Translations under genes and position numbers: made by a program
Source: Pontibacter burrus
GTDB taxonomy: Bacteria; Bacteroidota; Bacteroidia; Cytophagales; Hymenobacteraceae
Assembly: GCF_010686685.1 (NCBI RefSeq)
Contig: NZ_JAAGWD010000003.1
Location: forward strand, 186,001-250,000
Direction: 5' to 3'
DNA: 64,000 nucleotides
Notes under the pieces: generated by a model
What the model was told of the DNA's origin: nothing
Databases searched by the model: none
Seen by the model: only the letters and a program-made list of their open reading frames with translations
In this document: positions 1 to 64,000 of the stretch, in pieces
How the letters are laid out: every line of letters starts with the position of its first letter
Position numbering within the stretch: position 1 is the first letter of the stretch

Positions 1-1
1 A

Positions 2-688
2 ACCGACAAGGAAGGCTCCAGCTTATACTTTGCCAGTACAAACGGGCGCAACGGTTTTACAAATGAGAAAGTGATCGATACCCAACTCTGCCAATGCTGC
101 CGCACGGATCTGTATGTAGATAATGAACAGCAATTGCACGTGGCGTACCGCGGCATCCTCAACGACAGCATCCGCGACATGATGCACCTGGTATCATTAG
201 ACGGAGGTAAAACATTCTCAGGACCAGAGCGCATCAGCGCTGATAACTGGGTAATTGATGGTTGTCCGCATACTGGCCCGGCTATGACCTCGAATAAGTT
301 TGGAATGCACTATGCCTGGTTTACGATGGGCGGTGGAAGCGGCGTGTACTATAGCCAAAAAGAGCCCGGCAAAACCTTCACTCCCCGCGAAACTATAAGC
401 AATGCACCGGCAGCCCGGCACCCACAACTCAGCACGTTCAATAATGGAAAACTGGCTATAGTCTGGGACGAACGAGGCGGCAGCGACAAGAAAAGCAACT
501 ACATTGGGTTACAGATCCGCAGCGAGAACGGAGCCCACCTGAGAACCGCACAGCTTACAGCAGCCAATGGCAATGCAGTGTACCCGGTTATCACAACTAT
601 AAAAGACAAGGAGCTGCTGGTAGCTTATACAGTTAAGAAAGATAATGGCAATGAAGTGTGGTGGCAACTGGTAAAACCTGAGATATAG
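2..688 (+). CDS. Sialidase/BNR-repeat family protein, C-terminal part
   Basis: The reading frame is open to the left edge of the window, so the start lies outside and only the last 228 residues are seen. An Asp-box-like motif, SLDGGKTFSG, is visible near the middle of the visible part, and a second weaker copy, YSQKEPGKTFT, follows; such repeats form blades of sialidase-type beta-propellers. A CQCC cysteine cluster precedes the first Asp-box. Related Bacteroidota proteins are annotated as exo-alpha-sialidase or sialidase-family proteins, but the propeller is also used for other ligands, so no substrate is claimed. No partner gene is visible upstream. Confidence 0.7.
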   Translation, partial: TDKEGSSLYFASTNGRNGFTNEKVIDTQLCQCCRTDLYVDNEQQLHVAYRGILNDSIRDMMHLVSLDGGKTFSGPERISADNWVIDGCPHTGPAMTSNKFGMHYAWFTMGGGSGVYYSQKEPGKTFTPRETISNAPAARHPQLSTFNNGKLAIVWDERGGSDKKSNYIGLQIRSENGAHLRTAQLTAANGNAVYPVITTIKDKELLVAYTVKKDNGNEVWWQLVKPEI

Positions 689-712
689 ACTATTGTTCTA
701 TTGTTACATGAA

Positions 713-770
713 TTGCTGGCGCGAGCCGTTTGCTAGCGCGAGCCGTTTGCTGGCGCGAGCGTGCCGCTCG
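713..770. repeat. Short tandem repeat, 17-nt unit, ending in a hairpin
   Basis: The unit TTTGCTGGCGCGAGCCG is present about three times in a row at a 17-base period (713-728, 729-745, 746-760), with one A/G difference between copies. The last copy changes into a GAGCGTGCCGCTC hairpin. It lies just after the stop of the sialidase-like gene. Whether it works as a terminator cannot be told, since no T-run follows. Confidence 0.75.
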
Positions 771-1227
771 TGTCTCATTATGGTGTAGAGTCTCCTGACT
801 CAACTGGCCTGGAATGACAAGATTGCGTTAAGCGTTTACTATAGTTTGTAAGCAGTTCGTTCTATAGTCAGCTATAGTTGCAACCCGACACAAGCAGTTC
901 GTGCTATAGTTGCTGTTGATCCTGGGAGCTCTACTGGCCAATAGTTTTATAGTTGACTTTGGTGCGCTCACGGCCGCGGGGCCCCGTCTTCGGGCATCGC
1001 GCGGTGTACATTTCTTTTGCTCGTTCCTCGCAATGCCTGACGCCACCAGAAATCTACAAGGCGCTCAACCCAAAGACTGAGATCACTCGATAGCTACCAC
1101 TATAGTTTGATGAATGGCTATAGTTGCTTGGGTTTTCCGTGGTTGTTGTTCCATGGGCAGGCTGCGCCTGCCTGTTCGTGGTTAGTAACTATAGTACGAT
1201 AGCGCAAACTATAGCAGCAGCATAAAG

Positions 1228-1254
1228 TCCCCCTTTGAAGGGGGCAGGGGGATG
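1228..1254. repeat. C/G-tract intergenic element, copy 1
   Basis: A run of C, a short TTTGAA spacer and a run of G are followed by a second G-tract (CAGGGGGATG). The inverted C and G runs can pair. Three related copies are found at 1304-1333, 47272-47297 and 47355-47382, all in spacers. Confidence 0.65.
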
Positions 1255-1303
1255 ACTAACGCTAACTATAGAACTATAATTCCAACTATAGTAATTGCAG
1301 CAA

Positions 1304-1333
1304 CTCCCCTCTTGGGAGGGGTAGGGGTGGGTT
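1304..1333. repeat. C/G-tract intergenic element, copy 2
   Basis: Starts with CTCCCCTCTTGGGAGGGG, an inverted repeat, followed by TAGGGGTGGGTT. It has the same architecture as the copy at 1228-1254 and the inverted pair near 47.3 kb. Confidence 0.65.
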
Positions 1334-1434
1334 AATTGGCAACTATAGAACTACAGCTCAAACTACAGGCAATGACCCAGTCCCAGCACGGAAAAAAGCC
1401 TCACTGATAATCTGTAACAAACTATAATCAACAA

Positions 1435-2067: not shown

Positions 2068-3549
2068 TTATAGTTGTGGCTTTCGCAGCATACGTCCGGC
2101 CCGCTCACCGATAAAATCTTCACGCTCTTTAACAATTTTGCCATTCACGATCACGTACCTGAACCCGCTGGATAGCTGCATCGGGTTTTCGTAAGTGGCG
2201 TTCTCTTTTATCTCAGTTGGGTCAAAAAGCAGCAGGTCGGCTTTGTAACCGGGCTTAATCAGGCCACGATCTGGAATACCGATCGTTTCGGCGGTCAGGC
2301 CAGTCATTTTACGGATGCCTTCTTCTAATGGAAAGAGCTGCTTTTTCAATACAAAGGTTTGAATCATTTTGGCAAAAGAGCCGAAGCTACGCGGATGATT
2401 CATAAATGGGCTTCCATCGGTGCAGAGCATGGTGTACGGGTATTTCAGCAAAGCATCCTGCAAGGCTTCATCCATAATAAAATACGCACCAAAAGCTCCG
2501 TAAGGGCCAATATCCTCCATCAGTACATCCTCAAAAGGTTTATTTAGCTCAGTTGCCAGCTGGCCTAAAGTTTTTCCTTTAAATGGACCTGTTCCTATCA
2601 GCGTCGCTTCGGGACCATTGCGCTGTTCTATTTTATCTTTCAGGTATTGTCTTAACTCTTCGCCACGGGTTGTTTTCACTTCCTCGTAATTGTGAGGCAG
2701 TTTAGCCCAGTCCGGAAACAGAATTTCGATGGAAGTGTAGCTGGCAGTGTAGGGGTAGAAATCTGCTGTTGCCTTTATGCCATTGGCTCGTGCCTCGTCC
2801 AGTAAGCGGCAGATCTCTTCGGCGCGATCGGTGCCTTTGCCATAAACCACTTTTATGTGCGAAATCTGAACAGGGCAGTATTTACCCTGAGAGAGCAGTT
2901 CTTCGATGGCCGGAACTATAGTTGCATCGTTTTCGCTGCGCATGTGGCTCATGATCATGCCGCCGCGCGCGCCTACCAGTTGGGCCAGCCTGTCTAGCTC
3001 CGGCGTTTTACAGTTAAAGCCGGGGTTATACTCCAGTCCGGTGGTCATGCCAAAACAGCCCAGGTCCAGCGCTTCGTGCAGCAGCTGCTCCATTTGCGTC
3101 ATATCCTGTTCTGCGGGCTCTGTTTTATATTTGGCACCCGTCTGCATCCGGATGGTATTATGGCCGGCGAACATCACGATGTTCACGCCCGGCGTAAGCG
3201 CATCCACGCGGTTCATCCAGCTGCCCAGGGGCTCGCCCGAACTATAGCTATCTTCACTCAGGTCGGGGCTGAAGCCATCCTGACCCAAACATATGGTTGT
3301 AACTCCCATCGACAGGAAATTTTCGAAAGCCGGGGTTTTAAAAGGCTCACCGTGGGCATGCGCATCTATAAAACCCGGTGTCAGTATCAGGCCTTCGCCG
3401 TTAATGATCTTTTTGGCAGCATACGAGGCCGCATTGTGTTTCCCGATCAGGCAAATTTCACCATCCTTTACCCATACATCGGCCAGGTAGGGCGTGTGTC
3501 CGGTTCCATCATAAAGTGTTGCACCGGTTATCAGCAGATCGTAGGTCAT
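2068..3549 (-). CDS. N-acyl-D-amino-acid deacylase family amidohydrolase
   Basis: A 493-residue amidohydrolase-superfamily enzyme of the D-aminoacylase group, expected to remove acyl groups from N-acyl-D-amino acids. Visible metal-site features are the HAH pair at H64/H66, a cysteine at C87 in TTICLGQDG (D-aminoacylases use a Cys ligand here), H202 in SHMRSE, H231 in QISHIK, and a late aspartate in LCTDGSPF. The C-terminus carries the usual small beta domain (GYKADLLLFD). No signal peptide is seen, so the enzyme is probably cytosolic. A full AACTATAGTT copy lies in the gene at 2914. The precise substrate is unknown. Confidence 0.85.
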   Translation of the reverse strand: MTYDLLITGATLYDGTGHTPYLADVWVKDGEICLIGKHNAASYAAKKIINGEGLILTPGFIDAHAHGEPFKTPAFENFLSMGVTTICLGQDGFSPDLSEDSYSSGEPLGSWMNRVDALTPGVNIVMFAGHNTIRMQTGAKYKTEPAEQDMTQMEQLLHEALDLGCFGMTTGLEYNPGFNCKTPELDRLAQLVGARGGMIMSHMRSENDATIVPAIEELLSQGKYCPVQISHIKVVYGKGTDRAEEICRLLDEARANGIKATADFYPYTASYTSIEILFPDWAKLPHNYEEVKTTRGEELRQYLKDKIEQRNGPEATLIGTGPFKGKTLGQLATELNKPFEDVLMEDIGPYGAFGAYFIMDEALQDALLKYPYTMLCTDGSPFMNHPRSFGSFAKMIQTFVLKKQLFPLEEGIRKMTGLTAETIGIPDRGLIKPGYKADLLLFDPTEIKENATYENPMQLSSGFRYVIVNGKIVKEREDFIGERAGRMLRKPQL

Positions 3550-3618
3550 TTGTTTTGGCTTGTAATGTGTAAGGGTTTACGAACTTACTGATTTTATAAA
3601 AGCAAACTATAGAAGAGG

Positions 3619-4182: not shown

Positions 4183-4740
4183 ATGGCAGAAATGAAGTTA
4201 TTTATGGTATTGCTGGGTTGCCGGCCCAAAGGCCGGAACACCGAGCAGCACGATGTGTTTTTCGGTATTGGAGCAGCTATAAAAGACCTGGTGCCACAGT
4301 TTAAAGCTTTCTGGCCCGGTGCCGGCACCATGCACGTAGATGCCTGGCGCGCGGTAACTATAGTTGACAACTATAGCATAGCAGTTGTGCCAGCAAGAGA
4401 TGCAGGACCGAAACAAGAACAGCAGTTGTTTTTCCTGAACCTGGGAGGTTATAAAGAAGACGCGTTTGAGGAGTTTCATTACAAAATGCTGGTGGTGGCG
4501 CAGGATAAAAACGAAGCCATCAGGCAGGCAAAGCGAACCGCATTTTACAAACACACCGGCATACCGGACGCACCATCCCATATCGACGATAAATTTGGCG
4601 TGGATGTGGACGAGATGCACGAAGTAAAGGAAATTCTGACACCCGAACTTACGGCACAATTCAGCATTCGCATCAGCCCTGCGAGCACTGAAATGACCGA
4701 TAAATTACACCTCGGATATTTTCCGTTTCATAAACTATAA
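4183..4740 (+). CDS. DUF1543 domain protein
   Basis: A 185-residue cytosolic protein. The N-terminal segment KLFMVLLGCRPKGRNTEQHD is typical of DUF1543 proteins, which are found in many Proteobacteria and Bacteroidota and have no known function. Two homologous halves seem present, one around the GCRPKGRNTEQHD segment and one around LVVAQDKNEAIRQAKRTAFY. The frame stays open upstream to 4063, but that part overlaps the VOC gene on the other strand, so I chose the ATG at 4183; an ATG at 4192 is equally possible. The stop TAA sits in a partial copy of the iterated motif (AAACTATAA). Confidence 0.75.
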   Translation: MAEMKLFMVLLGCRPKGRNTEQHDVFFGIGAAIKDLVPQFKAFWPGAGTMHVDAWRAVTIVDNYSIAVVPARDAGPKQEQQLFFLNLGGYKEDAFEEFHYKMLVVAQDKNEAIRQAKRTAFYKHTGIPDAPSHIDDKFGVDVDEMHEVKEILTPELTAQFSIRISPASTEMTDKLHLGYFPFHKL

Positions 4741-7168: not shown

Positions 7169-7248
7169 AGAGCTATAGTTATTTAATATAAGCCAACTAT
7201 AGTTTAGCTGTTAGAAGCCCGAAACTATAGTATTTAGGAAGTGTAACC

Positions 7249-12453: not shown

Positions 12454-12902
12454 AGGCTTGGTATAAGTTATAGTTTGTTATAGTACCTTTTTCATCAGAT
12501 TTAAACCTGAATCCTGTTGGGTGTAACTGCACTTTTAGTAGGTTACTTTATTATGAGCTCAACCACCGGCAACCTTTCATACGGTAATCCTTTTGCTGTG
12601 TTTTCCGGATTTTGGTGCTTCTATACTTTAAAATATAGTAATTAAAGCATGTTTGATCTGCTGAAACAATCTCTTCAGGCCTTCAGGTGTTAAAATAGTA
12701 AATAGAACTATACTTATACCGCGGGTTAAGTGAAATTGTATTGCCAGGCTTTTAAGAATTGAGGTGGCAAAGAGTAATACTAAACAGTTATTTTACTTTT
12801 ATAAGTTAGTCTGGCAAAAGAACTAAAACCATCCCGAATTTGTAGCCACAGAAATACAGCAGCTATAGTTGGTAAACTATAGTTTGAGATGAAATTTTAT
12901 AG
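12454..12902. other. Gene-free AT-rich spacer between divergent genes
   Basis: No gene or family signature is visible. The spacer between the divergent DUF4142 and beta-propeller lipoprotein genes must hold their promoters. It contains motif copies near its right end (ctatagtt at 12863 and a full copy at 12875), the latter about 25 bases before the lipoprotein start. Confidence 0.6.
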
Positions 12903-13772: not shown

Positions 13773-14004
13773 CGTATTAATCAGCAAACTATAGTTGTGG
13801 CTGCAACCAGGCTTGAAACGATAGCCTGATGTAAGACATGACTTAGTACAACAACTATCTTATAGTTTAGAAGCGTATAGGTTTGTTAACCAAAGTATTT
13901 TAAAGCGGTTTAAGTAATAGCAGGACCTTTATAGTTTATAACTGGTGTACCTGATATCACAAATATTTATTTTCACGAATATAATCCCTTAATTTAGGGC
14001 CTGT

Positions 14005-14429: not shown

Positions 14430-14486
14430 ACTTTAATACGCTAACAGAAGCAACGCAAACTATAGTTTATAGTCCTGCAACTATAG

Positions 14487-15509
14487 TTATCGCATCAGGA
14501 ATCTGAAGTTATCGAGGTTGCGCAATGCTGTAGCGGTACCCTGCACCACCGAATGAAGCGGCGTTTCTACAACGTGTATCGGCAACCTGGTGCGTTTGGC
14601 CAGGCGACGGTCCAGGCCACGTAGCAAGGCGCCACCACCGGTTAAGTAAATACCCGACTGGTGAATATCCGAAGACAGTTCCGGTGGTGTAAGTTCCAGG
14701 GTCATCAGGATCGCATCCTCAATTTTGGTCAGCGATTTATCCAGGCAGGCGGCAATGTCCTTGTAGTTCACTTTTACCTGTTTAGGCAGCCCGTTCATCA
14801 GGTTGCGGCCTTTCACTGCATAGTCTTCCGGCGGATCGGCCAGTTCATCTATCGCTGCGCCAACTTCCAATTTAATTTTTTCTGCAGTACGCGCACCAAT
14901 CAGCATGCTGTGCTCTTTACGGATGTACTGTATAATATCCTCATCAAAGTTATTACCTGCCACACGTACCGACTGCGAACAAACGATACCGCTCAGAGCG
15001 ATAACCGCAATTTCAGTCGTGCCACCACCAATATCAATGATCATGTGCCCGGTTGGTTCCTGTACGTCCAGGCCAATGCCAATGGCTGCTGCAACAGGCT
15101 CATGTATCAGGTACACTTCTTTTGCACCGGCAATTACTGTAGAGTCACGTATGGCTCTTTTCTCTACTTCGGTTATGCCGGCAGGCACGCAAACTACCAT
15201 CCGGTATGAAGGTGACAGACTGAACCGGCCCTTTTTGGCTAGTTTCAGCATGCTTTTGATCATGTGCTCTGCCGCATGGAAATCAGCGATCACGCCATTT
15301 TTCAGTGGCTTCACGATCCGGATATTCTCATGCTCTCTGCCGGACATACGCTCGGCTTCACGACCAATAGCTACTACTTCGCCGGTGGTATAGTTAAAAG
15401 CAATGATAGATGGCTCATCCACAATTACATTGTTTTCCTGCATCACCAGAAAATTGGCCGTCCCGATGTCTATCGCAATGTCTTGTGTAAGTAATTTTAA
15501 AAAACTCAT
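14487..15509 (-). CDS. mreB: Rod shape-determining protein MreB
   Basis: A 340-residue actin-like protein of normal MreB length. Visible sites are the phosphate-1 loop DIGTANFLV at about 12-20, the segment PSIIAFN, PAGITEVEKRAIRDS, the phosphate-2 loop IDIGGGTTEIAVIALSG and the adenosine motif YLTGGGALLRGLD. MreB filaments lie under the inner membrane and guide elongation-phase peptidoglycan synthesis. No mreC/mreD genes follow here, so this copy may be a stand-alone or second paralog. Two full AACTATAGTT copies (14458, 14479) lie directly after its stop. Confidence 0.92.
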   Translation of the reverse strand: MSFLKLLTQDIAIDIGTANFLVMQENNVIVDEPSIIAFNYTTGEVVAIGREAERMSGREHENIRIVKPLKNGVIADFHAAEHMIKSMLKLAKKGRFSLSPSYRMVVCVPAGITEVEKRAIRDSTVIAGAKEVYLIHEPVAAAIGIGLDVQEPTGHMIIDIGGGTTEIAVIALSGIVCSQSVRVAGNNFDEDIIQYIRKEHSMLIGARTAEKIKLEVGAAIDELADPPEDYAVKGRNLMNGLPKQVKVNYKDIAACLDKSLTKIEDAILMTLELTPPELSSDIHQSGIYLTGGGALLRGLDRRLAKRTRLPIHVVETPLHSVVQGTATALRNLDNFRFLMR

Positions 15510-16376: not shown

Positions 16377-16572
16377 TTGTTAAAAATAAAGTCTGTTTTT
16401 GATGCCTGAGAAAGCCCCAGAGTATTAGGTACGTATAAGTTTCCGGTTTAATGTAAATTAGCCGGTTTATGAACTCAAAATTCTGTTAAATGCAAACTGC
16501 TGCGCTAAACTGCGTAAGCCTGACTACTGTATTCCAGAATGCTTACAGATTCAAACTATAGTTTTATGCTAC

Positions 16573-22576: not shown

Positions 22577-24387
22577 GCGTTTACAGTGGTTTGCTTGTAG
22601 ACTTCATTTATAGCCAGTGCCGCACTGATGAGCCCGATGTGCGAGAAGCCCTGTGGGTAATTGCCCAGCAGCTCATGTGTGTGCGGATTTATCTCTTCAG
22701 ACAATAGGCCGTTATAGCTGGCGTGCTGCAGGGTGGTTTCAAAAATATGCATAGCTTTTTCCAGTTCTCCAGCCCGGGCCAGGTTTTCGGCCAGCCAGAA
22801 ATTACAGATCACAAAAGCGCCTTCATCCCCAGTAAGCCCGTCTGTTATGCTGCGGTAGCGGTAAAGCAGGTCGTTTTCGGATAAGCGTTCTATAATCAGG
22901 CGGGTTGTGCCAAGCATGCGCGGCGATGCAGCGTTGCAGTAACCGGACAGTGAAAGCGTAAGCAGGCTGGCATCTACCATGTCACCGCTTAGTTCGTGGG
23001 TGTATGAGTCGATGGTAGTGTTGTACCCCTGCTGTTCTATAGTTGCCTGTATGGCAGCTCTTACCTGCCTGTACTTTTCCAATGACACATCTTTCCAGCT
23101 ATAGTTTTCTGCCAGTTTTATGAGCCGGTCCAGCCCGACCCAGGCCATTACCAAAGAGTGCGTATGCCGAACTATAGACGAGCGTATTTCCCAGATGCCG
23201 TTGTCGGGCTGGTGCCATAGTTTGCAGATAATGTTGCCGAGTCCCAGCGCAAATTTTTGGGTGGCTCTGTCCGGAGCCTCAAAAGGAGCATAGACATAAA
23301 TAGCATCCAGTACTTCGCCGTACACATCCAGCTGAAACTGCTTGTCTGCGCCATTTCCTATCCGTACAGGTTTCGAATTTCGGTAGCCACGCAGCCAGTC
23401 CAGGGTTTTCTCTTTTAGCGTAGCATGGCCAAACACGGAATAAACCACCTGTAGTTTTGGCTGCGTAAGCCGGGTGGCGTGCAGAATCCAGTTCAGGTAA
23501 GCATTTGCCTCGTTTCTGAAACCGAGCTTTACCAGTGCCCTCACCGTAAAAGACGCATCTCGGAGCCAGCAGTACCGGTAATCCCAGTTTCGTCCGCCGC
23601 CTTCCGATTCTGGAAGCGATGTGGTTGGTGCCGCAACTATAGCCCCGGATGGCGCATGTGAGAGCAGTTTCAGGGTGAGGGCGCTCCGTTTTATCTGTTC
23701 CAGGTAAAGCCCGCTATAGTTACAATCCGCAATCCAGTGTTGCCAGAACGTTACCGTTTGCCGCATCCGGTACCAGCCCGTTTGTTTTAGCTCTGGTATT
23801 ATGGCCGGGCTCTGGCTGGAATATGCTAACGCGAAAAGTACGCGCTTTCCGGCATGTACGGTAAAAGTAGCAGTAACCCTGGTTTCGTTAACCATAAGCT
23901 GTTCCGGGGGCAGGGTGGTGTGCAGGCTGTAGATATTTTCCTTCCAGGTGCACTGTATGCCCAGCTGCCTATAGTTCTTAAGTTTTGGAGGCAGCTTGCC
24001 ATAATAGAGGCGGGGAACATACTCAAGTTGCATGGTAACTGAACCGGAAACCCCTTCCACACAGCGCAGAATTTCATGATCAGGTTGCAGCGCTATGGTT
24101 TTCTGCTCTTCTGTTTGCGCGGTAAATGCATCCAGTAATTTTACGGTTCCCTGCTCAGTCTCGAACACGATCTCTGAAACATTTGTGTCGGGCAGGTAGC
24201 GTTGCTCTGAACTATAGTTTCCGATAGGTCGGATGGTAAAATGCCCGCCTTTCTCCTCGTCAAGCAAGGCGGCAAACAGTGCGGGAGAATCAAATTCAGG
24301 CAGGCAACACCAGTCTATTGAGCCGCTTTTGCATACAAGGGCGGCGGCCCGCGAATTACCGATCAATGTATAATTCCTGAGTATCAT
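22573..24387 (-). CDS. Glycoside hydrolase family 15 protein
   Basis: A 604-residue glucoamylase/trehalase-type enzyme (GH15). After a beta-sandwich N-domain (about 1-240), the (alpha/alpha)6 barrel starts with the hallmark RNWDYRYCWLRDASFTVRAL near residues 262-281, and a second conserved piece TGDEGAFVICNFW lies near 510-522. The general acid/base is a glutamate in one of these loops, not assigned here. No signal peptide is seen, so it is probably cytosolic; trehalose, starch breakdown products or related oligosaccharides are possible substrates. A full AACTATAGTT copy (24210) lies within the gene. Confidence 0.88.
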   Translation of the reverse strand: MILRNYTLIGNSRAAALVCKSGSIDWCCLPEFDSPALFAALLDEEKGGHFTIRPIGNYSSEQRYLPDTNVSEIVFETEQGTVKLLDAFTAQTEEQKTIALQPDHEILRCVEGVSGSVTMQLEYVPRLYYGKLPPKLKNYRQLGIQCTWKENIYSLHTTLPPEQLMVNETRVTATFTVHAGKRVLFALAYSSQSPAIIPELKQTGWYRMRQTVTFWQHWIADCNYSGLYLEQIKRSALTLKLLSHAPSGAIVAAPTTSLPESEGGGRNWDYRYCWLRDASFTVRALVKLGFRNEANAYLNWILHATRLTQPKLQVVYSVFGHATLKEKTLDWLRGYRNSKPVRIGNGADKQFQLDVYGEVLDAIYVYAPFEAPDRATQKFALGLGNIICKLWHQPDNGIWEIRSSIVRHTHSLVMAWVGLDRLIKLAENYSWKDVSLEKYRQVRAAIQATIEQQGYNTTIDSYTHELSGDMVDASLLTLSLSGYCNAASPRMLGTTRLIIERLSENDLLYRYRSITDGLTGDEGAFVICNFWLAENLARAGELEKAMHIFETTLQHASYNGLLSEEINPHTHELLGNYPQGFSHIGLISAALAINEVYKQTTVNA

Positions 24388-24702
24388 ATCCGGAAGTAGT
24401 CTGTGCTATAGTTGCCAGCAACTATCCTGTTAGATGCAGAGCAGGTTATTAGCGTTACAAATCCGGAACTATAGTTAGCCGCGCACGCTTCTATTGTATG
24501 TAGCTTTGTCGGTGCCCGATTTATAGTTCAGTAAAAAATCTGCTATTCCTTGCCTCTCTGTTATGTACTGCTATGGCTTAGATTTTCGGGCTGCCTTATG
24601 CTAACGCAGGTTAAATGCATGAACTATAGTTAAGCAGGCCGCAATAACCGGGGCGCTTTACTGCGTTATAATAAATCCGCCAAATTTGGTATCTTTGTTT
24701 AC
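24388..24702. other. Gene-free spacer with two full motif copies
   Basis: This spacer between divergent genes holds full AACTATAGTT copies at 24467 and 24622 and no gene. A -7 type promoter box lies at its right end (listed separately). Confidence 0.7.
24690..24697 (+). promoter_or_regulatory. Bacteroidota-type -7 promoter box TATCTTTG
   Basis: TATCTTTG matches the TAnnTTTG box used by the primary sigma factor of Bacteroidota. It ends only five bases before the ATG of the secreted protein gene at 24703, so the transcript would start at or next to the start codon (leaderless), unless translation begins further inside. I see no clear TTG element 19-21 bases further upstream, so confidence is limited. 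Confidence 0.5.
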
Positions 24703-27411: not shown

Positions 27412-27526
27412 AGTTACAAAGTGCAGTGGTTTATAGTACGCAACTATAGTTTAACTGGTAATAACTAAGAACTTGATTTTATGTTGGAAAAACGCAGGGT
27501 TTTGTAACTATACACTATTGCATAAT

Positions 27527-29815: not shown

Positions 29816-30124
29816 AGCAACTATAGCTTCACTTTTCCCGGGTGCAGGATGTAGATTTCGTAAGTAACATTTGTACTGTTATTCTCTTTGGTCTAACTAT
29901 AGTTTGATTGAGGATGACCAGGTTTTAAGTTGTGACCTGCGAAGTCTACGTCCTGCACTTAGGCAGGGGAAGAGGCCCTGCAATAAGGAAGTCCTGTGAC
30001 TAAGTCCGGAGACGAAAGATCCGTTTTTAAATCTATCTGCTACTTTTATAGTATAAAGTTTTAGGCCAGCACAAATGCTGTTTTGTGCTTTAGCCTGAGT
30101 CACTATAGAACTAAACTGCCTGCC
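29816..30124. other. Gene-free spacer with an imperfect inverted repeat
   Basis: A 19-base segment, GTGCAGGATGTAGATTTCG (29842-29860), and its near reverse complement, CGAAGTCTACGTCCTGCAC (29940-29958, 17 of 19 matching), flank about 79 bases that include a full AACTATAGTT copy at 29895. This could be a small inverted-repeat element or a stem of a structured RNA. No gene is called. Confidence 0.55.
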
Positions 30125-33553: not shown

Positions 33554-33786
33554 ACATGCTTTATTTGAAGGTTAGAAGAGTACCTCATGGCTTAGCTGCT
33601 AATCATATCTTGTTATAACTACTCTTTTAAGCAAGGGCATGTTTTCAATAAGCATAAATGAATAAATTCAGTTTTACACTAGCAGCCCTCTAATGTTCGA
33701 AAACAAGCTTAGCGATCTGTTTACCTCAACTATAGTTTAATATTCAATCTTTTGTATATTTAGCTATCCCAACTAATCCTTTTATA

Positions 33787-37644: not shown

Positions 37645-37873
37645 TTGGGTAGAAGCAGATGAATGCAGTGCGCAAATTAATATTTTCTCTGATACGACAA
37701 TGTAATTGATGCAGGCAGCGGAATGAGTTTTGTGATATTATAGTTTAAGCAATACAGCTATAGTTTAAAAAGGCGAAATTAGCGCCAGTTACTGGTTACA
37801 ACTATAGTTGCTAAGAGCAGGAATACAAAACTTTTCAAAATACCGCTCTGTTACTTTTGCTAAGCCCCGTGAT

Positions 37874-39889: not shown

Positions 39890-40132
39890 CTTTATTGGAA
39901 TTAGATTTCACAAGTATAGGCAGGAATTATGATGTTGCAATGCCACTGAACTATAAACTATAGCTGAGTTTCAGCCCTTGTGTTTTCCGCGTATCTATAG
40001 TTGTTATGCATCTTTAGAAGGGTACTCTAAACTATAGCTTTTATAGTTCTTGAAGTCATTTCTATACAAACTATAGTTGCTCATGTTCCTGCACATAGTC
40101 AGTTCCTGAGCAACTATAGTTTGTGTTATAGT

Positions 40133-41503
40133 TTACAATGCCTGTTGTCTTATAGCCTCCACTTCAGTTATAGTTTTAGGTAGTGGCTCACCTAATATTC
40201 GGCTGCCGGACTCAGTTATTACCAGATCATCCTCAATGCGGATGCCACCAAAATCACGATAAGTGTCCAGCATTTCAAAATTGATGAATTGCTGCGCTAC
40301 TTTGTCGTTGCGGCGCATGTCGATCAACTCCGGAATAATGTAGATGCCCGGCTCCACCGTCAGCACAAAGCCCGGTTCTAGTGCTCGGCCCAGGCGCAGC
40401 GACTTCAGCCCAAATTCGGTGCTCTTACGCAGTTCCGGAGTATAACCCACGTATTGCTCGCCCAGGTTTTCCATATCGTGCACGTCCATGCCCATCATGT
40501 GGCCCAGGCCGCACTGGAAAAACATGGTATGCGCGCCGGCCTGCACAGCTTCATCAGTATCCCCGTGCATCAGTCCTACTTGTTTCAGTCCGTCTGTTAG
40601 TTTGCGGCAGGCCAGCAGATGCACATCTTTATACAACATACCTGGCTTCAGGGCAGCCATGGCCGCTTCGTGTGTATCCAATACTACCTGGTATAATTCG
40701 CGCTGGCGCTCCGTAAATGTTGGCCCAACTGGGAACGTACGGGTCATGTCGCCGGCGTAGCCTGCTGCCGTTTGGATACCAGCATCGAGCAGGAGCATAT
40801 CGTTTGCCTTCAGGGTATTGCCGCGGTAGTGGTTATGCAGGATCTGACCCTGCGTGGTGCAAATTACCGGGAAGGAGAGGAGGTTGCCTGTTGCTTCCGC
40901 ATAACGAATCGCTTCGGAGGCTACTTCATGTTCTTTCATGCCTTCACGGGCAAACTGCATTACGCTGCGGTGCATGCGCGAGGTAAACGTTACCGCCTTT
41001 TCAATCTCCTGTATTTCTGCTTCAGATTTAATAGAGCGTTGCGCAACTATAGTTTCTATCAGTGGTAAACTTGGTTCTAAAACAGTTTTTCCGGTCCAGG
41101 CCTGAAGTTTAAGTTGGTGCTCCGGTCGGTAAGGTGGCAGATAATGCAGGTTATTTGCTCCAGCCAGGTAGTCAGCTATTTTCCCGTTTGGCATTACGTT
41201 ATGTACACCTACCTGTTCGGCAAGAGAGGCCAGGCTAGGCAACGGGCCTGTCCAAACCACATCATCTATACTTTGTTCCGGCCCGAAAAGAATTACTTCA
41301 TCGCGGTCTATGTCTATGACTCCCGTCAGGTCAGCAAGGTCCAGCCCGAAATAGTAACGGAAAGTACTGTCCTGGTAAAAAGGATACCAGTTGTCTTTAT
41401 AGTTCATACCGGCCTCCTCGTTGCCCAGGAGCAGTACAAGTCCTCCGCCAAGTTGTTGCTTCAGTTGCTGGCGTCGTTGTGTATAAGTAGTTGCATCAAA
41501 CAT
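40133..41503 (-). CDS. Xaa-Pro aminopeptidase (M24B)
   Basis: A 456-residue metallopeptidase that removes an N-terminal residue ahead of proline. After an N-domain (about 1-170), the creatinase-fold half holds the metal ligands: two Asp in LLDAGIQTAAGYAGDMTRTFP, His in CGLGHMMGMDVHD, Glu in VEPGIYIIPE and Glu in IRIEDDLVITE. No signal peptide is seen. It lies downstream of and co-oriented with an AraC regulator that faces the hydroxyproline operon, which suggests release of proline or hydroxyproline from imported peptides. A full AACTATAGTT copy (41045) lies in the gene. Confidence 0.9.
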   Translation of the reverse strand: MFDATTYTQRRQQLKQQLGGGLVLLLGNEEAGMNYKDNWYPFYQDSTFRYYFGLDLADLTGVIDIDRDEVILFGPEQSIDDVVWTGPLPSLASLAEQVGVHNVMPNGKIADYLAGANNLHYLPPYRPEHQLKLQAWTGKTVLEPSLPLIETIVAQRSIKSEAEIQEIEKAVTFTSRMHRSVMQFAREGMKEHEVASEAIRYAEATGNLLSFPVICTTQGQILHNHYRGNTLKANDMLLLDAGIQTAAGYAGDMTRTFPVGPTFTERQRELYQVVLDTHEAAMAALKPGMLYKDVHLLACRKLTDGLKQVGLMHGDTDEAVQAGAHTMFFQCGLGHMMGMDVHDMENLGEQYVGYTPELRKSTEFGLKSLRLGRALEPGFVLTVEPGIYIIPELIDMRRNDKVAQQFINFEMLDTYRDFGGIRIEDDLVITESGSRILGEPLPKTITEVEAIRQQAL

Positions 41504-48795: not shown

Positions 48796-51000
48796 ATGTA
48801 CCAACTAAAACTACGAACCTTTTTGCTGCAGCTGTTGCTGCTTTTCATTTTTACAGTTACCACATTTGCACAGGGCAACCGAAACCGCCAATGGCTGAAA
48901 GCTGGTAACGCCTACCTGCAGGCCGAACAAGGGCAACTTATAAAGTATAGTTTACCTGACGGGGCTTCCACTGGTTTCCTGGAGAAAGCAGCCTTGGTGC
49001 CAGCCGGTAAAACCGAACCTTTAAGTATCCGCAACTTCGCCTTATCTGCAGATGAAAAGAAAGTGCTGATCTACACCAATACCAAGAAAGTCTGGCGTTA
49101 CGATACCCGTGGCGATTACTGGGTGTATGACCTTCAGAGCAAAAAGTTAAGCCAGATAGGAGCCGGTAGGCCTGAGTCGTCGCTGATGTTTGCCAAATTC
49201 TCGCCTGATGGCAGTAAGGTAGCATACGTTAGCGAACACAATATTTTTGTAGATGACCTGCAGAGCGGAAAGCAAACACAGCTAACTAAAGACGGCACCC
49301 GCAAGCTCATTAACGGTACTTTTGACTGGGCTTATGAAGAAGAGTTCTCTGCCCGCGACGGCTTCCGCTGGAGCCCCGACAGCAAACGAATTGCCTACTG
49401 GCAGCTGGATGCCACACAGGTAAAAGACTACATCATGTTCGACATGCTGGATGGTGTGTACGCAAAGGTAATTCCGGTAGAGTACCCGGTGGCCGGAGAA
49501 GCTCCATCGCCTTATAAAATTGGCGTAGTAGACATAACCGGTGCGGCAACCCGCTGGATGGAAATTCCCGGAGACCCACGCAATACCTATTTGCCCCGAA
49601 TGGAATGGGCTGCTTCTGCCGACGAACTGATCGTACAGCAGCTGAACCGCAAGCAAAACGAAAGCATACTGTACTTATGCAATGCAGCCAACGGCAAAAC
49701 CAGACAGATTTACAAAGAACAGGATGATGCCTGGATCGATATCTTGCCTAGCTGGGACAATTCTTATAGTTACGGGGGCTGGGATTGGCTGAATGGTGGC
49801 AAGGAATTTTTATGGGCGAGCGAGAAAGACGGCTGGAGGCACCTCTACCGCGTTAGCCGCGACGGTAAGAAAGAGCACCTGATAACCAAAGGGAATTATG
49901 ATGTGATGGAGATTGCCGGTATCGATGAAAAAGAAGGCTACGTTTACTTTATGGCTTCGCCGGACAACGCTACGCAGCAATACCTTTACCGCACCCGCCT
50001 GAATGGAAAAGGCAAAGCAGAACGGCTTACACCGGCCTCACAGCCAGGCACACACAACTATAGTTTATCACCGAATGCAAAGTTTGCACAGCACCGTTTT
50101 TCTAACCACTATACCAAGCCGGTAAGCGAGTGGGTAACCTTACCAAACCACAAAGCTGTAAACGGGGAGAGTCCGGTTGAGAAAGTACTGGCAATTTCAA
50201 ACAAAGCTAACAGCGGTGTAGAGTTCCTCAAGATTAAAACAGCTGAAGGCGTAGAGATGGATGCCTGGATGGCTAAGCCTGCCAACTTCGATGCGAAGAA
50301 AAAATACCCGATTGTGTTTTATGTGTACACTGAGCCAGCAGGTCAGACCGTGACCGACACATACGGGACTGGTATGAATTACCTGTACAATGGCGACATG
50401 GCTGAAGATGGCTATATCTATGTGTCGGTAGACAACCGGGGTACACCTGCTCCGAAAGGCAGAAGCTGGCGCAAGAGCATTTACCGCAAAGTAGGCCAGC
50501 TGAACATTGCCGATCAGGCTGCTGCTGCCCGTGAACTTCTGAAGCTGCCATATGTAGATGCATCGCGTGTAGCGGTGTGGGGCTGGAGTGGTGGCGGTTC
50601 CGCCACGCTTAACCTGCTATTCCAGCATCCGGACATCTATAAAACTGGTATATCGGTAGCGGCTGTAGCAAACCAGCTTACTTACGACAACATTTACCAG
50701 GAGCGCTACATGGGGCTGCCACAGGAGAATCGTGAAGACTTTGTGAAAGGCTCACCAATTACTTATGCCAAAAACCTGCAGGGCAACCTACTCTATATTC
50801 ACGGCACCGGCGACGATAATGTGCATTATAACAATGCTGAACAGCTGGTAAATGAGCTGATCAAACACAACAAGCAGTTTCAGTTTATGCCTTACCCGAA
50901 CCGCTCGCACAGCATCTCGGAAGGGGAAGGAACCGGAGAGCATCTGTCTACCCTGTTCACAAATTACCTGAGACAGTACTGCCCGCCCGGTGGTCGATAA
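48796..51000 (+). CDS. S9 peptidase, dipeptidyl peptidase IV type
   Basis: A 734-residue exported serine peptidase (signal peptide MYQLKLRTFLLQLLLLFIFT). An N-terminal beta-propeller with FDWAYEEEFSARDGFRWSPD (DPP IV-like Glu pair, about 180) precedes an alpha/beta-hydrolase domain. The catalytic serine is S598 in GWSGGGSATLNLLF; Asp and His are in GTGDDNVH and PYPNRSHSIS. It should release X-Pro or X-Ala dipeptides from peptides outside the inner membrane. A full AACTATAGTT copy (50056) lies in the gene. A second S9 gene follows, with a terminator between. Confidence 0.9.
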   Translation: MYQLKLRTFLLQLLLLFIFTVTTFAQGNRNRQWLKAGNAYLQAEQGQLIKYSLPDGASTGFLEKAALVPAGKTEPLSIRNFALSADEKKVLIYTNTKKVWRYDTRGDYWVYDLQSKKLSQIGAGRPESSLMFAKFSPDGSKVAYVSEHNIFVDDLQSGKQTQLTKDGTRKLINGTFDWAYEEEFSARDGFRWSPDSKRIAYWQLDATQVKDYIMFDMLDGVYAKVIPVEYPVAGEAPSPYKIGVVDITGAATRWMEIPGDPRNTYLPRMEWAASADELIVQQLNRKQNESILYLCNAANGKTRQIYKEQDDAWIDILPSWDNSYSYGGWDWLNGGKEFLWASEKDGWRHLYRVSRDGKKEHLITKGNYDVMEIAGIDEKEGYVYFMASPDNATQQYLYRTRLNGKGKAERLTPASQPGTHNYSLSPNAKFAQHRFSNHYTKPVSEWVTLPNHKAVNGESPVEKVLAISNKANSGVEFLKIKTAEGVEMDAWMAKPANFDAKKKYPIVFYVYTEPAGQTVTDTYGTGMNYLYNGDMAEDGYIYVSVDNRGTPAPKGRSWRKSIYRKVGQLNIADQAAAARELLKLPYVDASRVAVWGWSGGGSATLNLLFQHPDIYKTGISVAAVANQLTYDNIYQERYMGLPQENREDFVKGSPITYAKNLQGNLLYIHGTGDDNVHYNNAEQLVNELIKHNKQFQFMPYPNRSHSISEGEGTGEHLSTLFTNYLRQYCPPGGR

Positions 51001-51064: not shown

Positions 51065-51282
51065 TGCATCAGGCATTTCAGCATTCGCTAATCAGCTATA
51101 GTTTGAGACAAACTATAGGCATCAACAGAGAAAATCAGAACTATAGTTTAGTCAATGAGCTGCCTGTTTTCCTGGATTTGATGCTCAGGTAGATCAATAT
51201 AGTATCAGTAAATGCCAATATCGCAGGTGTATCGCGTGTTTTATAGCTGTAGATTGACCGTACAACTATAACATGATACTCG

Positions 51283-53728: not shown

Positions 53729-53788
53729 TAATTTAGGGTGCTTCAACTATAGTTTTCTTTTAAACTATAGTTGAAGCACCCTAAATTA
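53729..53788. repeat. Perfect 27-bp inverted repeat with AACTATAGTT in both arms
   Basis: The left arm (53729-53755) and right arm (53762-53788) are exact reverse complements over 27 bases, with a six-base loop (TCTTTT). Each arm holds TTAGGGTGCTTC next to a full AACTATAGTT copy (53745 and 53763). It ends 13 bases before the start of the DUF4256 gene and 137 bases after the S9 gene stop, so it could control that gene or be a small element of its own. Confidence 0.9.
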
Positions 53789-58631: not shown

Positions 58632-59187
58632 CAGATATCTATTATTAAGGTTGCTTACATAGCTATACGGTAGCAGTACGCAGAACGGGCAAAGGCTACA
58701 GTTTATAGTTGTGATGACCACCAATACTTCTGTTTGAAAAGATAGCGAGAGGCTATGCATTAGGTGCACACCGCTCAGAACTATAGCACTACTGATAACT
58801 TCTCCTGAAGTGAGGAGGAACTGTTAAAGCAAGAAACTATAGTTCTGGATTTGATGAAATGAGCAATCTTATAGTTTACGCCAGCACTATTACTTATAGA
58901 ATCTGTTGGCGAATTAGCTGTTGCGGGACTTTCGGTAAAGAAGCAAAGCCAGCTATAGTACGTTCAGAAGCTCTTATTAAACTATAGCTTGTCGTAACCA
59001 ATTAACTGCTCTGCAATCTAAAATTATATGCCAGTTGAAGTAACTGTTAATGAAACGGCCAATTACTGAAGTTGATGCTTTTAAGCTAAATAGTTTGCAG
59101 CGAGTTGATTATAAGGGAATAGTGAGGGCTGATTTCAGCAAGTGCTTTAGGTAGTTGAACAAATGCTGAAACATTTCCGTTAATTAT

Positions 59188-60802: not shown

Positions 60803-60842
60803 ACCTGAAACTATAGTTTCATCATCATTAAATACGAGGACT

Positions 60843-61872: not shown

Positions 61873-61876
61873 GCAC

Positions 61877-62173
61877 ATGGATATTGAAGTAAAGGATAAT
61901 CCGGCCCAAAGCAGGTTTGAGACAACTATAGATGGGCATACCGCCATGATCGAGTATAAACTACAGCCTGGTGTTATAACTGTTTTACATACCGAGGTGC
62001 CGAAAGAACTGGAAGGCCGCGGCATCGCCGGCACCATGACAAAATTTGCGCTGGAACATATCCGTGCCAAGGGGTTAGCGCTAATTCCCTTATGTCCTTA
62101 TATGCGCGCCTATCTCAAGAAGCATCCCGAGTATAATGACCTGGTAAGAGACGGAACTGTTAAGAATGTATAA
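61877..62173 (+). CDS. GNAT-like small N-acetyltransferase
   Basis: A 98-residue protein of the Gcn5-like, YidJ-type (PF14542) acetyltransferases. The acetyl-CoA loop is in LEGRGIAGTMTKFALE with the KGLALIPLCPYMRAYLKKHPE tail. It starts four bases after the hydrolase stop, hence co-transcribed. The target is unknown. Confidence 0.88.
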   Translation: MDIEVKDNPAQSRFETTIDGHTAMIEYKLQPGVITVLHTEVPKELEGRGIAGTMTKFALEHIRAKGLALIPLCPYMRAYLKKHPEYNDLVRDGTVKNV

Positions 62174-62185
62174 ACTATACGCACT

Positions 62186-63145
62186 GTGCTTTACCACATA
62201 GATTTTAAAGGCGAAAAAGTGGTTCCTGTCGGTGAGGGGCAGACTATATTGCAGGCATCACTGGCAGCCGGTATTCCGCACTATCATGCATGTGGAGGTA
62301 AAGGACAATGCACAACTTGCCGGGTATTGGTACTGCAAGGACAGGAACAGATAACTCCGCCTACCAGCTATGAGCGTGTTATTAAAAATGTAAAGAAGTT
62401 TCCGGATAACGTACGGCTAGCCTGCCAGTCTAAGGTGAATGGGGAAGGGGTAAAAGTACAGCGACTGATACGGGATGAAACTGACCGCTACATTTTTATT
62501 AATGACTCAGAAGCCAGCACAACGCGGGTAATGGGCGAGCGGCGCAAGCTGGCACTTTTCTTTATCGATATCCGCAACTTTACACCGTTTATCGAAGCAA
62601 ATTTACCTTTCGATGTAATACATATCATGCGCAGGATTTTTGCAATCTTCCGGAATGCAATTACCCAATATAACGGCGAAATTATAGAAACTGCCGGCGA
62701 CGGACTTTATGCCGTATTCGGACTTAACAGCAAAATCAAACAGGCTACCGAGTCGGCAGTGCTGGCTGGCTTAAAAATACTTTCTGACCTGAGAATCTTT
62801 AACAATACCTACATGCGCCCTTATTTTAACCACACTTTTGAGGTTGGGATAGGCGTGCATGTGGGTAAAGTAATTGTTGGTAACGTAGGCATTGGCTTAA
62901 GCAATAACATGACAGTAATGGGATATCCGGTAAACGTAGCAGCCAGGCTTCAGGCAGCTACCAGAGAACTGGATAATAGTTTTGTGATCTCTGATCTGGC
63001 TTACCGACTTCTTAAAAATCCACCTTATTCTATGGGCTGTGGTTATCTTACCCTGAAAGGTGTGAGTAATGCCTACGAAGTAAAACTGATCGGTAAACCT
63101 TATGAGACAAAACAGGCAACTATAATTACAGAATCCGGCTCATAG
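62186..63145 (+). CDS. 2Fe-2S ferredoxin domain fused to an adenylate/guanylate cyclase
   Basis: A 319-residue two-domain protein. Residues 1-100 form a plant-type ferredoxin domain, with cluster cysteines in HACGGKGQCTTC and a distal RLACQSK. Residues about 120-300 are a class III nucleotidyl cyclase: FFIDIRNFTPFIE (metal Asp), GEIIETAGDGLYAVFG, VGKVIVGNVGIGLSNNMTVM and GYPVNVAARLQAAT. The cyclase should make cAMP or cGMP in response to redox or iron-sulfur state. The start is a GTG at 62186, 12 bases after the GNAT stop, so it is likely in the same transcript. Similar fusions occur in other bacteria. Confidence 0.88.
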   Translation: MLYHIDFKGEKVVPVGEGQTILQASLAAGIPHYHACGGKGQCTTCRVLVLQGQEQITPPTSYERVIKNVKKFPDNVRLACQSKVNGEGVKVQRLIRDETDRYIFINDSEASTTRVMGERRKLALFFIDIRNFTPFIEANLPFDVIHIMRRIFAIFRNAITQYNGEIIETAGDGLYAVFGLNSKIKQATESAVLAGLKILSDLRIFNNTYMRPYFNHTFEVGIGVHVGKVIVGNVGIGLSNNMTVMGYPVNVAARLQAATRELDNSFVISDLAYRLLKNPPYSMGCGYLTLKGVSNAYEVKLIGKPYETKQATIITESGS

Positions 63146-63335
63146 TATAAGTATCGTTAAAATAATAAAGTCAGCTGTTTATAGTTTTACAGTGAGCTTT
63201 AACTTGATCAGCAACTATAGTTCAAGGTCTTAAACTATAGCTGAAATTACCAGTCTACATACAATATTATGAATTGCTTAGATGCTTAAAAACGGTTCAA
63301 AGATAGGTGTTTCGTAAATGCTATTGGGGCCTCTC

Positions 63336-63707
63336 TTACTTATTCAGAAACCTGTAAAAAATAACACCGCCTGTTGCGTAGAGCACAGCATCCAGGAAGT
63401 CACCGGTATAGCGGGGCATAAATTGGGGGAAGAAAACCTCGAATGCCAGCGAAAAATACAGCACCGTAAAAGCTACGTGATAGGAGGAGAGACGAACCCG
63501 TTGGCCGTAGAAGAACCGTAGTACAAATAAGGTGGCCGTGAGCACCAGCGGCAGGCAAAGTAAATCGTCCAGGTAGTGTTGTACCCACAAGGGCCGGGGT
63601 AAAGCCAGCCAACGCCAGCCACAATGACCCATGTACACCACAGCCAGCGCCCAGAATAGTGGACTAAGGGTGTTCCAACTTAGCCGGCCAGCAAAGCGAT
63701 CAACCAC
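63336..63707 (-). CDS. Membrane protein, magnesium citrate secondary transporter-like
   Basis: A 123-residue protein (from a GTG at 63707) with three to four hydrophobic segments, TLSPLFWALAVVYMG, YLDDLLCLPLVLTATLFVLRFF, SSYHVAFTVLYFSLAFEVFFP and FLDAVLYATGGVIFYRF. I recall small Bacteroidota proteins of this kind labelled magnesium citrate secondary transporter, though the label is weak. The frame is open further to 63782, but the overlap with the zinc-ribbon gene makes that start unlikely. The real start could also be internal. Confidence 0.55.
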   Translation of the reverse strand: MVDRFAGRLSWNTLSPLFWALAVVYMGHCGWRWLALPRPLWVQHYLDDLLCLPLVLTATLFVLRFFYGQRVRLSSYHVAFTVLYFSLAFEVFFPQFMPRYTGDFLDAVLYATGGVIFYRFLNK

Positions 63708-63976
63708 AGAATAAAAGAGATAATGGACACAAAGGCGACCTGAAACCCCAGCCCTATTCGTTTGAAGAACTTGATAATCCAATGGTCATCAGGATTAATC
63801 TGTATGAATTCCATAGAGAAACGCCCACTATCTTCTTTACTTCGTTCTTCCCGCGCCTGCTGGCGTGCAAGAGCTACCGGATCAAGTATACTTTGGCAAT
63901 GCTCGCAGCGATCGGCCGGGTTTTGGGTCCAGCGGGACCATTGACCACAGTTAGGACATTTTCTACTAGCGTTCAT
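63680..63976 (-). CDS. Zinc-ribbon membrane protein
   Basis: A 98-residue protein with a zinc-ribbon (CPNCGQWSRW and RCEHCQSI; cysteines at 8, 11, 23, 26), a charged linker and one hydrophobic segment at the end (about 75-97). The function is unknown. It overlaps the membrane-protein gene that follows by about 28 bases, suggesting one transcript. Confidence 0.75.
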   Translation of the reverse strand: MNASRKCPNCGQWSRWTQNPADRCEHCQSILDPVALARQQAREERSKEDSGRFSMEFIQINPDDHWIIKFFKRIGLGFQVAFVSIISFILWLIALLAG

Positions 63977-64000
63977 AGAGATTCAGATAAAGCTTTTCCG

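What the first reader, a model, noticed from the sequence alone, without database searches (positions are those of the whole stretch)
1..64000. A ten-base palindrome, AACTATAGTT, saturates the window like a HIP1-type element
I counted by eye 28 full copies and far more partial ones (ACTATAG, CTATAGTT), where a random sequence of this composition would have about 0.1 full copies. Copies occur in spacers and in genes, on both strands equally because it is a palindrome, with no host gene or element around them. The nearest parallel is HIP1 (GCGATCGC) of cyanobacteria. Possible roles (methylation site, replication or nucleoid binding, recombination site, mismatch-repair bias) are guesses. The non-palindromic half (TATAGTT) is also common, so the true core may be AACTATA.
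Basis: partly seen in the sequence, partly recalled or inferred. Interest (0 to 1): 0.85.

Follow-up and report, generated by a model that had tools for sequence, protein, structure and literature searches.

The report
Genome-wide DNA watermark with species dialects
A short DNA word is repeated thousands of times across this bacterium's chromosome, its relatives carry the same word with a different spelling, and the pattern resembles the tags some bacteria use to recognise their own kind's DNA.

Summary
The window holds exactly 28 AACTATAGTT. The genome, a Pontibacter (Bacteroidota), holds 1300, against 9 for the reversed control. The palindrome is not the unit. The unit is a sharp, asymmetric 8-mer, AACTATAG. 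Other Pontibacter carry the same element with another 5' triplet: AGGTATAG or AAGTATAA. Of 50 genomes, 39 show a clear AAC, AGG or AAG dialect, 4 are weak or odd and 7 show none. On a MutS tree, AGG and AAC follow clades and AAG looks ancestral. Three genomes hold two dialects at once, as if switching. Sites are 3 to 6 times denser in spacers than in genes, have no orientation bias, survive better than control 8-mers between species, and are nearly missing from the one prophage examined. The closest analogue is DNA-uptake-sequence dialects, but no full type IV pilus ATPase was found. The HIP1-style methyltransferase link failed for the two families searched. An uptake tag is my best, unproven explanation; the receptor is unknown.

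The parts
2914..2923 (.). AACTATAGTT, in a called gene
4356..4365 (.). AACTATAGTT, in a called gene
7195..7204 (.). AACTATAGTT, spacer
12875..12884 (.). AACTATAGTT, spacer
13787..13796 (.). AACTATAGTT, spacer
14458..14467 (.). AACTATAGTT, spacer
14479..14488 (.). AACTATAGTT, spacer, touching the 3' end of a called gene
16554..16563 (.). AACTATAGTT, spacer
24210..24219 (.). AACTATAGTT, in a called gene
24467..24476 (.). AACTATAGTT, spacer
24622..24631 (.). AACTATAGTT, spacer
27442..27451 (.). AACTATAGTT, spacer
29895..29904 (.). AACTATAGTT, spacer
30251..30260 (.). AACTATAGTT, in a called gene
30416..30425 (.). AACTATAGTT, in a called gene
30915..30924 (.). AACTATAGTT, at the 3' end of a called gene
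33728..33737 (.). AACTATAGTT, spacer
37800..37809 (.). AACTATAGTT, spacer
40069..40078 (.). AACTATAGTT, spacer, in a cluster
40112..40121 (.). AACTATAGTT, spacer, in a cluster
41045..41054 (.). AACTATAGTT, in a called gene; the same column carries an AAC site in G018, G048 and G054
50056..50065 (.). AACTATAGTT, in a called gene; same column: AAC in G018, G048, G054, AAG in G021 and G012
51139..51148 (.). AACTATAGTT, spacer
53745..53754 (.). AACTATAGTT, spacer
53763..53772 (.). AACTATAGTT, spacer
58835..58844 (.). AACTATAGTT, spacer
60809..60818 (.). AACTATAGTT, spacer
63213..63222 (.). AACTATAGTT, spacer
39952..40169 (.). spacer cluster of 11 half-sites AACTATA/TATAGTT, both orientations
1101..1423 (.). 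spacer cluster of 9 half-sites; similar spacings in three other clusters, so probably part of a dispersed repeat

Best explanation
The element is an asymmetric 8-bp word, NNN-TATA-R, that this Pontibacter lineage spells AACTATAG. SHOWN: it is hyperabundant genome-wide; its 5' triplet differs between clades (AAC, AGG, AAG) round a constant TATA; it is kept better than control words and is several times denser in spacers than in genes; it has no orientation bias and is nearly missing from the one prophage examined. INFERRED: it is a self-recognition tag for DNA, like an uptake sequence. A cell-surface or periplasmic DNA receptor prefers fragments bearing the tag, and recombination of such fragments into the chromosome spreads and renews tags by molecular drive. 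When the receptor's specificity shifts, the genome is slowly rewritten in the new dialect; G045 and G061, with two dialects each, look like genomes in mid-switch. The full palindrome arises because, in the AAC dialect, two opposite copies can share one TATA core. The receptor is not identified, and it is not part of a type IV pilus of the Neisseria kind if the absence of pilus ATPases is real.
For: Abundance: 1300 palindromes; AACTATAG 814 in 464 kb against 74 by an order-3 model. Dialects: in samples of 17-484 kb one NNNTATA word leads clearly in 39 of 50 Pontibacter. Whole genomes: AGGTATAG 2823-5222 in 12 AGG genomes, 833 or fewer in the other 38; AACTATAGTT 1087-1477 in 5 genomes, 104-330 in three mixed ones, 0-28 in the other 42. 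AGG and AAC follow species clades, as the abstract of PMC3630211 says of Neisseriaceae DUS dialects, where one genome also holds two dialects in nearly equal numbers (abstract and one results section read). Two dialects together in G045, G061 and G063. Maintenance: the site is intact in the relative more often than permuted 8-mers in the same alignments in 15 of 15 comparisons. Placement: spacers 3-6 times the density of genes in three dialects; no orientation bias, 565 F against 551 R. A 27-kb prophage has 0.3 half-sites per kb against 2.9 for the sample. A Bacteroidota species, Riemerella columbina, is reported to take up its own DNA preferentially (PMC7965970, passages).
Against: No uptake or competence of Pontibacter appeared in the papers listed by my searches, lists that were capped. 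Only short partial matches to the pilus/secretion ATPase family were found in 50 genomes, so the known tag-reading machinery seems missing. ComEC is present in 50 of 50, whole in all 7 genomes without the motif, and carries a stop in two genomes that do have a dialect, G009 and G022. The ComEC tree groups by dialect, but so does MutS, so this singles out nothing. PMC1939737 says uptake sequences are not biased to places downstream of genes (passage), whereas here convergent spacers are densest in AAC and AGG species. Any long-lived chromosome-wide binding protein would leave much the same picture. Sites are over-clustered (20% of gaps under 50 bp, 12% expected), partly because of repeats.
Confidence: 0.42

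Rival explanations
1. The motif is the binding site of an abundant chromosome-associated protein (nucleoid organiser, segregation or replication factor) whose specificity drifts between clades; sites are kept by selection on chromosome packaging.
For: Dispersed at roughly one half-site per 350 bp with no orientation bias, densest in spacers, kept better than control words; partly palindromic sites in the AAC dialect suit a dimer.
Against: Changing the site of a structural protein would need thousands of sites to change together; two dialects side by side in G045, G061 and G063, and seven motif-less genomes lying among motif-bearing ones in the ComEC tree, suit a tolerant process better. No candidate protein was found here, and none was searched for.
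Confidence: 0.25
2. HIP1-type element: an orphan methyltransferase marks the word and a biased mismatch-repair ratchet creates and keeps copies, as Elhai proposed for cyanobacterial HIPs.
For: Hyperabundance, replacement of one word by another in related genomes, and maintenance resemble HIP1 and alternate HIPs (PMC4390886, abstract and section 3.5 read).
Against: At E 1e-6 PF01555 is absent from G000, G018, G045, G048 and G054, and present in 30 of 50 overall; PF02086 in 13 of 50, one of G000's two copies lying in a prophage. The word is asymmetric and AT-rich. Near-matches reached by transitions are 1.0-3.3-fold, as decay products might be, though some transversions are also raised. PF00145, PF02384 and PF07669 were not searched genus-wide.
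Confidence: 0.17
3. The motif is a regulatory or promoter element, or a transcription terminator.
For: Spacer enrichment and, in AAC and AGG species, highest density between convergent genes; a few inverted pairs exist (10 FR and 16 RF pairs with loops up to 14 bases in 484 kb).
Against: Divergent, promoter-bearing spacers have the lowest density in G000, the other AAC genomes and AAG, and equal the tandem ones in AGG. No orientation relative to genes in tandem spacers (133 against 127). About 40-fold excess inside called genes under a codon model (322 observed, 7.7 expected, repeats not masked). The spelling changes between relatives.
Confidence: 0.06
4. Artefact of a dispersed repeat or mobile element family carrying the word.
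For: 185 of 860 AACTATAG in the sample lie in sequence that recurs elsewhere in it, and several clusters share spacings.
Against: 675 of 860 lie in unique sequence with an 11-fold excess over order 3, and flanks beyond the word carry no consensus.
Confidence: 0.02

Closest known systems
DNA uptake sequence (DUS) dialects of Neisseriaceae
   Same: Thousands of copies, different spellings round a shared core, two dialects in one genome in one case, dialects consistent with the phylogeny (PMC3630211, abstract and one section).
   Different: 8-mer with a TATA core, in Bacteroidota; no full pilus ATPase found in 50 genomes, so no ComP-like pilus reader is expected; uptake untested.
Uptake signal sequences (USS) of Pasteurellaceae
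   Same: Short word, more in non-coding DNA than expected and without orientation bias round the chromosome (so PMC1939737, passages); two spellings sharing one half (recalled).
   Different: As for DUS; also no A/T-rich flanking segments here (that USS have them is recalled), and a convergent-spacer excess.
HIP1 and alternate HIPs of cyanobacteria
   Same: Genome-wide iterated short word, replaced by another word in some relatives (PMC4390886).
   Different: HIPs are GC-rich palindromes tied to cognate methyltransferases; this is an AT-rich asymmetric word with no common methyltransferase in the two families searched.
CTAGGCCAC of four genomes in genus g18 of the same family (found here)
   Same: Hyperabundant short word limited to a few species, 1290-2235 copies on both strands.
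   Different: Unrelated letters; of two inverted pairs seen in one 20-kb sample, one is flanked by T-runs, like a terminator (L202).

Membership tests
DNA uptake sequence (DUS/USS) | Hundreds to thousands of copies, far above Markov expectation | tested here: met
DNA uptake sequence (DUS/USS) | Clade-specific dialects round a conserved core | tested here: met
   TATA core constant, triplet AAC/AGG/AAG; AGG and AAC follow clades, AAG is paraphyletic
DNA uptake sequence (DUS/USS) | More frequent in non-coding DNA, no orientation bias | tested here: met
DNA uptake sequence (DUS/USS) | Type IV pilus uptake machinery (pilus ATPase) | tested here: not met
   PF00437: only matches of 38-66 of 370 positions in 50 genomes, 3 of 50 just over the cut-off; at most 31 candidates per genome were scored. 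Pilins themselves not searched
DNA uptake sequence (DUS/USS) | The word raises uptake or transformation of DNA carrying it | not testable with these tools
   needs a transformation assay
HIP1 / alternate HIP | Iterated palindromic word | tested here: not met
   core is asymmetric; palindromes hold 262 of 814 AACTATAG in G000; in G044 AGGTATACCT 7 against AGGTATAG 81
HIP1 / alternate HIP | Cognate DNA methyltransferase present with the word | tested here: inconclusive
   PF01555 and PF02086 do not follow the motif; PF00145, PF02384 and PF07669 not searched genus-wide
HIP1 / alternate HIP | Word is methylated in the cell | not testable with these tools
   no long-read modification data
Dispersed repeat / mobile element | Conserved sequence beyond the word | tested here: not met
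   flank information near zero; 675 of 860 AACTATAG in unique DNA

The most novel reading that the evidence does not exclude
Bacteroidota of the genus Pontibacter practise self-specific DNA uptake with tag dialects but without type IV pili, using an unknown receptor. Several genomes are caught in the middle of a dialect switch, and the same kind of system has arisen with an unrelated word in a second genus of the family.
Probability: 0.3. Interest if true: 0.9.

Novelty: new variant of a known kind. Interest (0 to 1): 0.74.

Why it matters
Uptake-sequence dialects are known from Neisseriaceae, read there by the pilin ComP, and from Pasteurellaceae, where a pilin is predicted as reader (PMC3868556 and PMC12616744, abstracts in search listings). 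The role of HIP1 in cyanobacteria is still a matter of models (PMC4390886). A third, independent lineage with dialects, mixed genomes and motif-less relatives would be a new natural experiment. It lets one ask what creates such watermarks, how a change of specificity rewrites a genome, and whether they limit gene exchange between species. It may also mark foreign DNA in these genomes, since the one prophage examined nearly lacks the word. No paper listed by my searches reports, in its title or abstract start, such a motif in Pontibacter or its family; several lists were capped and only an open-access library was searched.

Tried and rejected
1. ComEC as the specificity gene. Its tree groups by dialect, and against the 734-aa window gene this looked like decisive discordance; I wrote so in a note. 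A MutS tree of 30 chosen genomes then showed that the dialect groups are simply species clades; it is the 734-aa gene whose identities disagree with MutS. I withdrew the claim (note). 2. Type IV pilus ATPases: only short partial matches. 3. Methyltransferases PF01555 and PF02086: no match to the motif's distribution. 4. Promoter or terminator role: disfavoured by placement and lack of orientation. 5. Dispersed repeats as the cause: refuted by masking. 6. Helical phasing of neighbouring sites: no clear 10-11 bp period that I would claim. 8. Unmasked convergent-spacer density in G000 (9.3 per kb) fell to 6.1 once repeats were masked; I use the latter. The other dialect sets were not masked.
Full report
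What was claimed and what is there. The window contains exactly 28 AACTATAGTT. Base composition predicts about 0.08 (my arithmetic) and an order-3 Markov model 0.75. The whole genome G000 (4,314,171 bases, 29 contigs) contains 1300, against 9 for the word read backwards. So the excess is real and not local.

Whose genome it is. The species of G000 itself was not named by any search.

The unit is an 8-mer. In 464 kb of G000 the top 8-mer is AACTATAG, 814 copies on both strands against 74 expected at order 3. Only 262 of these 814 belong to the 131 palindromes. Aligned flanks show a sharp core AACTATA followed by G (0.61) or A (0.24), weak preference for one or two bases on each side and nothing beyond. 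The palindrome is therefore best read as two opposite copies sharing one TATA. It is still commoner than chance: 32% of AACTATAG are followed by TT.

Repeats are not the cause. With all sequence that recurs elsewhere in the 484-kb sample masked (22,869 bases), 675 of 860 AACTATAG and 118 of 139 palindromes remain, an 11-fold excess for the 8-mer. One-base neighbours reached by transitions are 1.0-3.3-fold (positions 1-7), as decay products might be. Some transversions are raised too, among them AAGTATAG at 2.4-fold, and others fall to 0.3-fold.

Dialects. I held 17 to 484 kb from each of the 50 Pontibacter genomes (plus 5-kb loci for G061 and G063) and ranked the 64 words NNNTATA in each. AACTATA leads strongly in 6 genomes (G000, G018, G047, G048, G054, G061), AGGTATA in 12 and AAGTATA in 21. 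Four are weak or odd: G007 (AAGTATA and AACTATA, both weak), G002 (weak AACTATA), G059 (GGGTATA/CGGTATA) and G057 (TATATA-rich words). Seven (G024, G041, G046, G053, G055, G056, G058) show no convincing excess. Whole-genome counts agree: AGGTATAG 2823-5222 in the 12 AGG genomes and at most 833 in the other 38; AACTATAGTT 1087-1477 in five AAC genomes, 330, 232 and 104 in G061, G045 and G063, and 0-28 in the other 42. AAGTATAA was not counted in whole genomes. In the 154 searched genomes of five other genera of the family AACTATAGTT occurs 0-8 times. In 20-kb samples of 20 of them, and in the loci of 10 kb or more among L033-L107, such a word heads the list only in Pontibacter.

History. In a MutS protein tree of 30 chosen genomes, the 7 AGG genomes form one clade (100/100) and the 6 AAC genomes plus G045 another (99/99); AAG lies on both sides of the midpoint root and looks ancestral. 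Only one of the seven motif-less genomes (G046) is in that tree; in the ComEC tree all seven lie among motif-bearing ones. Inside the AAC clade the old word is still visible: AAG against AAC per 100 kb is 225/155 in G045, 152/212 in G061, 115/355 in G047, and 22-50 against 288-342 in G054, G048, G018 and G000. I read this as one switch at different stages. G063, outside that clade, is also mixed (303/88). In an alignment of window region 40139-51000 across 13 genomes (G049 was dropped, too short), six AAC sites are shared by G000, G018, G048 and G054 and no other genome (41048, 41398, 43704, 45209, 45931, 46870). Some columns carry different dialects in different species (43542, 44527, 48946, 50059, 50866). 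The match is imperfect: at 43542 G000 has AGG and G044 AAG, and at 50866 G048 and G054 have AAG. In the open spacers, sites are mostly not in shared columns.

Maintenance. In 15 directed comparisons over 11 species pairs of like dialect, the site found in one genome is intact in the other in 31-85% of cases, against 15-66% for 150 permuted 8-mers in the same alignments; the motif is ahead in 15 of 15. Examples: G018 to G000, 24 of 42 against 24 of 108; G005 to G050, 23 of 28 against 45 of 102. Reciprocal comparisons are not independent, and the G000-to-other rows include repeats.

Where the copies sit. With repeats masked in G000, density is 4.33 per kb in spacers and 0.94 in genes. Unmasked, four other AAC species give 6.46 and 1.16, AGG 2.28 and 0.72, AAG (without G045 and G007) 2.41 and 0.58. 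Convergent, tandem and divergent spacers have 6.1, 4.3 and 4.0 per kb in G000, 11.2, 6.2 and 4.1 in the other AAC, 7.7, 1.6 and 1.6 in AGG, and 2.7, 3.0 and 0.75 in AAG. There is no orientation bias relative to the strand (565 against 551) or, in tandem spacers, to genes (133 against 127). Inside called genes the word is about 40 times above a codon model (322 against 7.7, repeats not masked). My gene calls are simple and spacers may include unrecognised genes.

Foreign DNA. A 27-kb stretch of contig C11 (102,630-129,659) has 8 half-sites, 0.3 per kb against 2.9 per kb over the sample. It encodes a terminase-like protein, DnaB, two DNA methyltransferases (PF00145, PF02086), a PDDEXK protein and a phage integrase (8 of 10 proteins scanned had a Pfam match), so I read it as a prophage. 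Three other gaps of 3-4 kb (one in C11, two in C24) were not examined.

Machinery. Type IV pilus or type II secretion ATPases (PF00437): only matches of 38-66 of 370 positions in 50 genomes, 3 barely over the cut-off. ComEC (PF03772): one per genome in 50 of 50, broken by a stop in G009 and G022, a shorter frame in G018, and whole in all 7 motif-less genomes. Its tree groups by dialect, but MutS does too, so it is not evidence for ComEC as reader. Methyltransferase families PF01555 (30 of 50, not G000) and PF02086 (13 of 50) do not follow the motif at E 1e-6.

Interpretation. Hyperabundance, dialects with a common core, coexistence of two dialects, spacer preference and lack of orientation are together what is described for DNA uptake sequences (PMC3630211; PMC1939737, passages). 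The convergent-spacer excess in two dialects is not. HIP1 shares hyperabundance and replacement by another word, but its methyltransferase link was not found in the two families searched (PMC4390886). A chromosome-binding protein remains a serious rival. I therefore say 'works like an uptake tag' at 0.42 and do not file it as a DUS, because the pilus machinery test failed and uptake itself cannot be tested here.

A second case. CTAGGCCAC occurs 1290-2235 times on both strands in 4 of the 120 g18 genomes (G097, G099, G185, G193) and at most 122 in the others. In that sample one inverted pair is followed by T-runs read either way, and another is not. Unrelated letters, same habit.

Literature. 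I searched the held open-access library for the words themselves, for Pontibacter with transformation, competence and motif, for HIP1-type palindromes and for uptake-sequence dialects with Bacteroidetes. The word AACTATAGTT hit 33 papers, of which the 20 listed are all malaria-related by title; AACTATAG as a whole word hit none. No listed title or abstract start reports this motif; several lists were capped. Papers were read only in the parts named above.

Noticed in passing
L202 (G099:C1:180001-200000), e.g. around 15507-15545: A second, unrelated hyperabundant word (TAGGCCAC) in four genomes of genus g18 of the same family; one inverted pair there is flanked by T-runs and looks like an intrinsic terminator.
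   Followed up: partly
L136/L137 (G000:C11:102630-129659): Prophage with terminase-like, DnaB, integrase, PDDEXK and two DNA methyltransferase genes; G+C 0.50 against 0.47, almost free of the motif.
   Followed up: partly
window 40139-51000: This stretch and its 734-aa gene are about as close in DNA to G044, G021 and G012 (best pieces 81-83%) as to, or slightly closer than to, the motif clade mates G018, G048 and G054 (78-82%), against the MutS tree; it may have been exchanged between clades.
   Followed up: partly
window 1101-1423; L142:10802-11061; L145:15378-15672; L259:19718-19983: Clusters of half-sites with recurring spacings (8, 12, 20, 57 bp), the window one next to GC-rich words that recur in spacers.
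   Followed up: partly
ComEC loci L264 (G009), L268 (G022), L219 (G018): ComEC carries an internal stop in two genomes and has a shorter frame in a third, while it is whole in all seven motif-less genomes.
   Followed up: no
L184, L251 (G057); L186, L253 (G059): Two genomes with other TATA-centred words in excess (TATATA-rich; GGGTATA/CGGTATA): possible further dialects.
   Followed up: no
ComEC tree against MutS tree: ComEC mostly evolves several to twenty times faster than MutS in this genus, for example 0.45 against 0.048 on the stem of the AAC clade (roots by midpoint only; the AGG stem, 0.11 against 0.082, is an exception).
   Followed up: no
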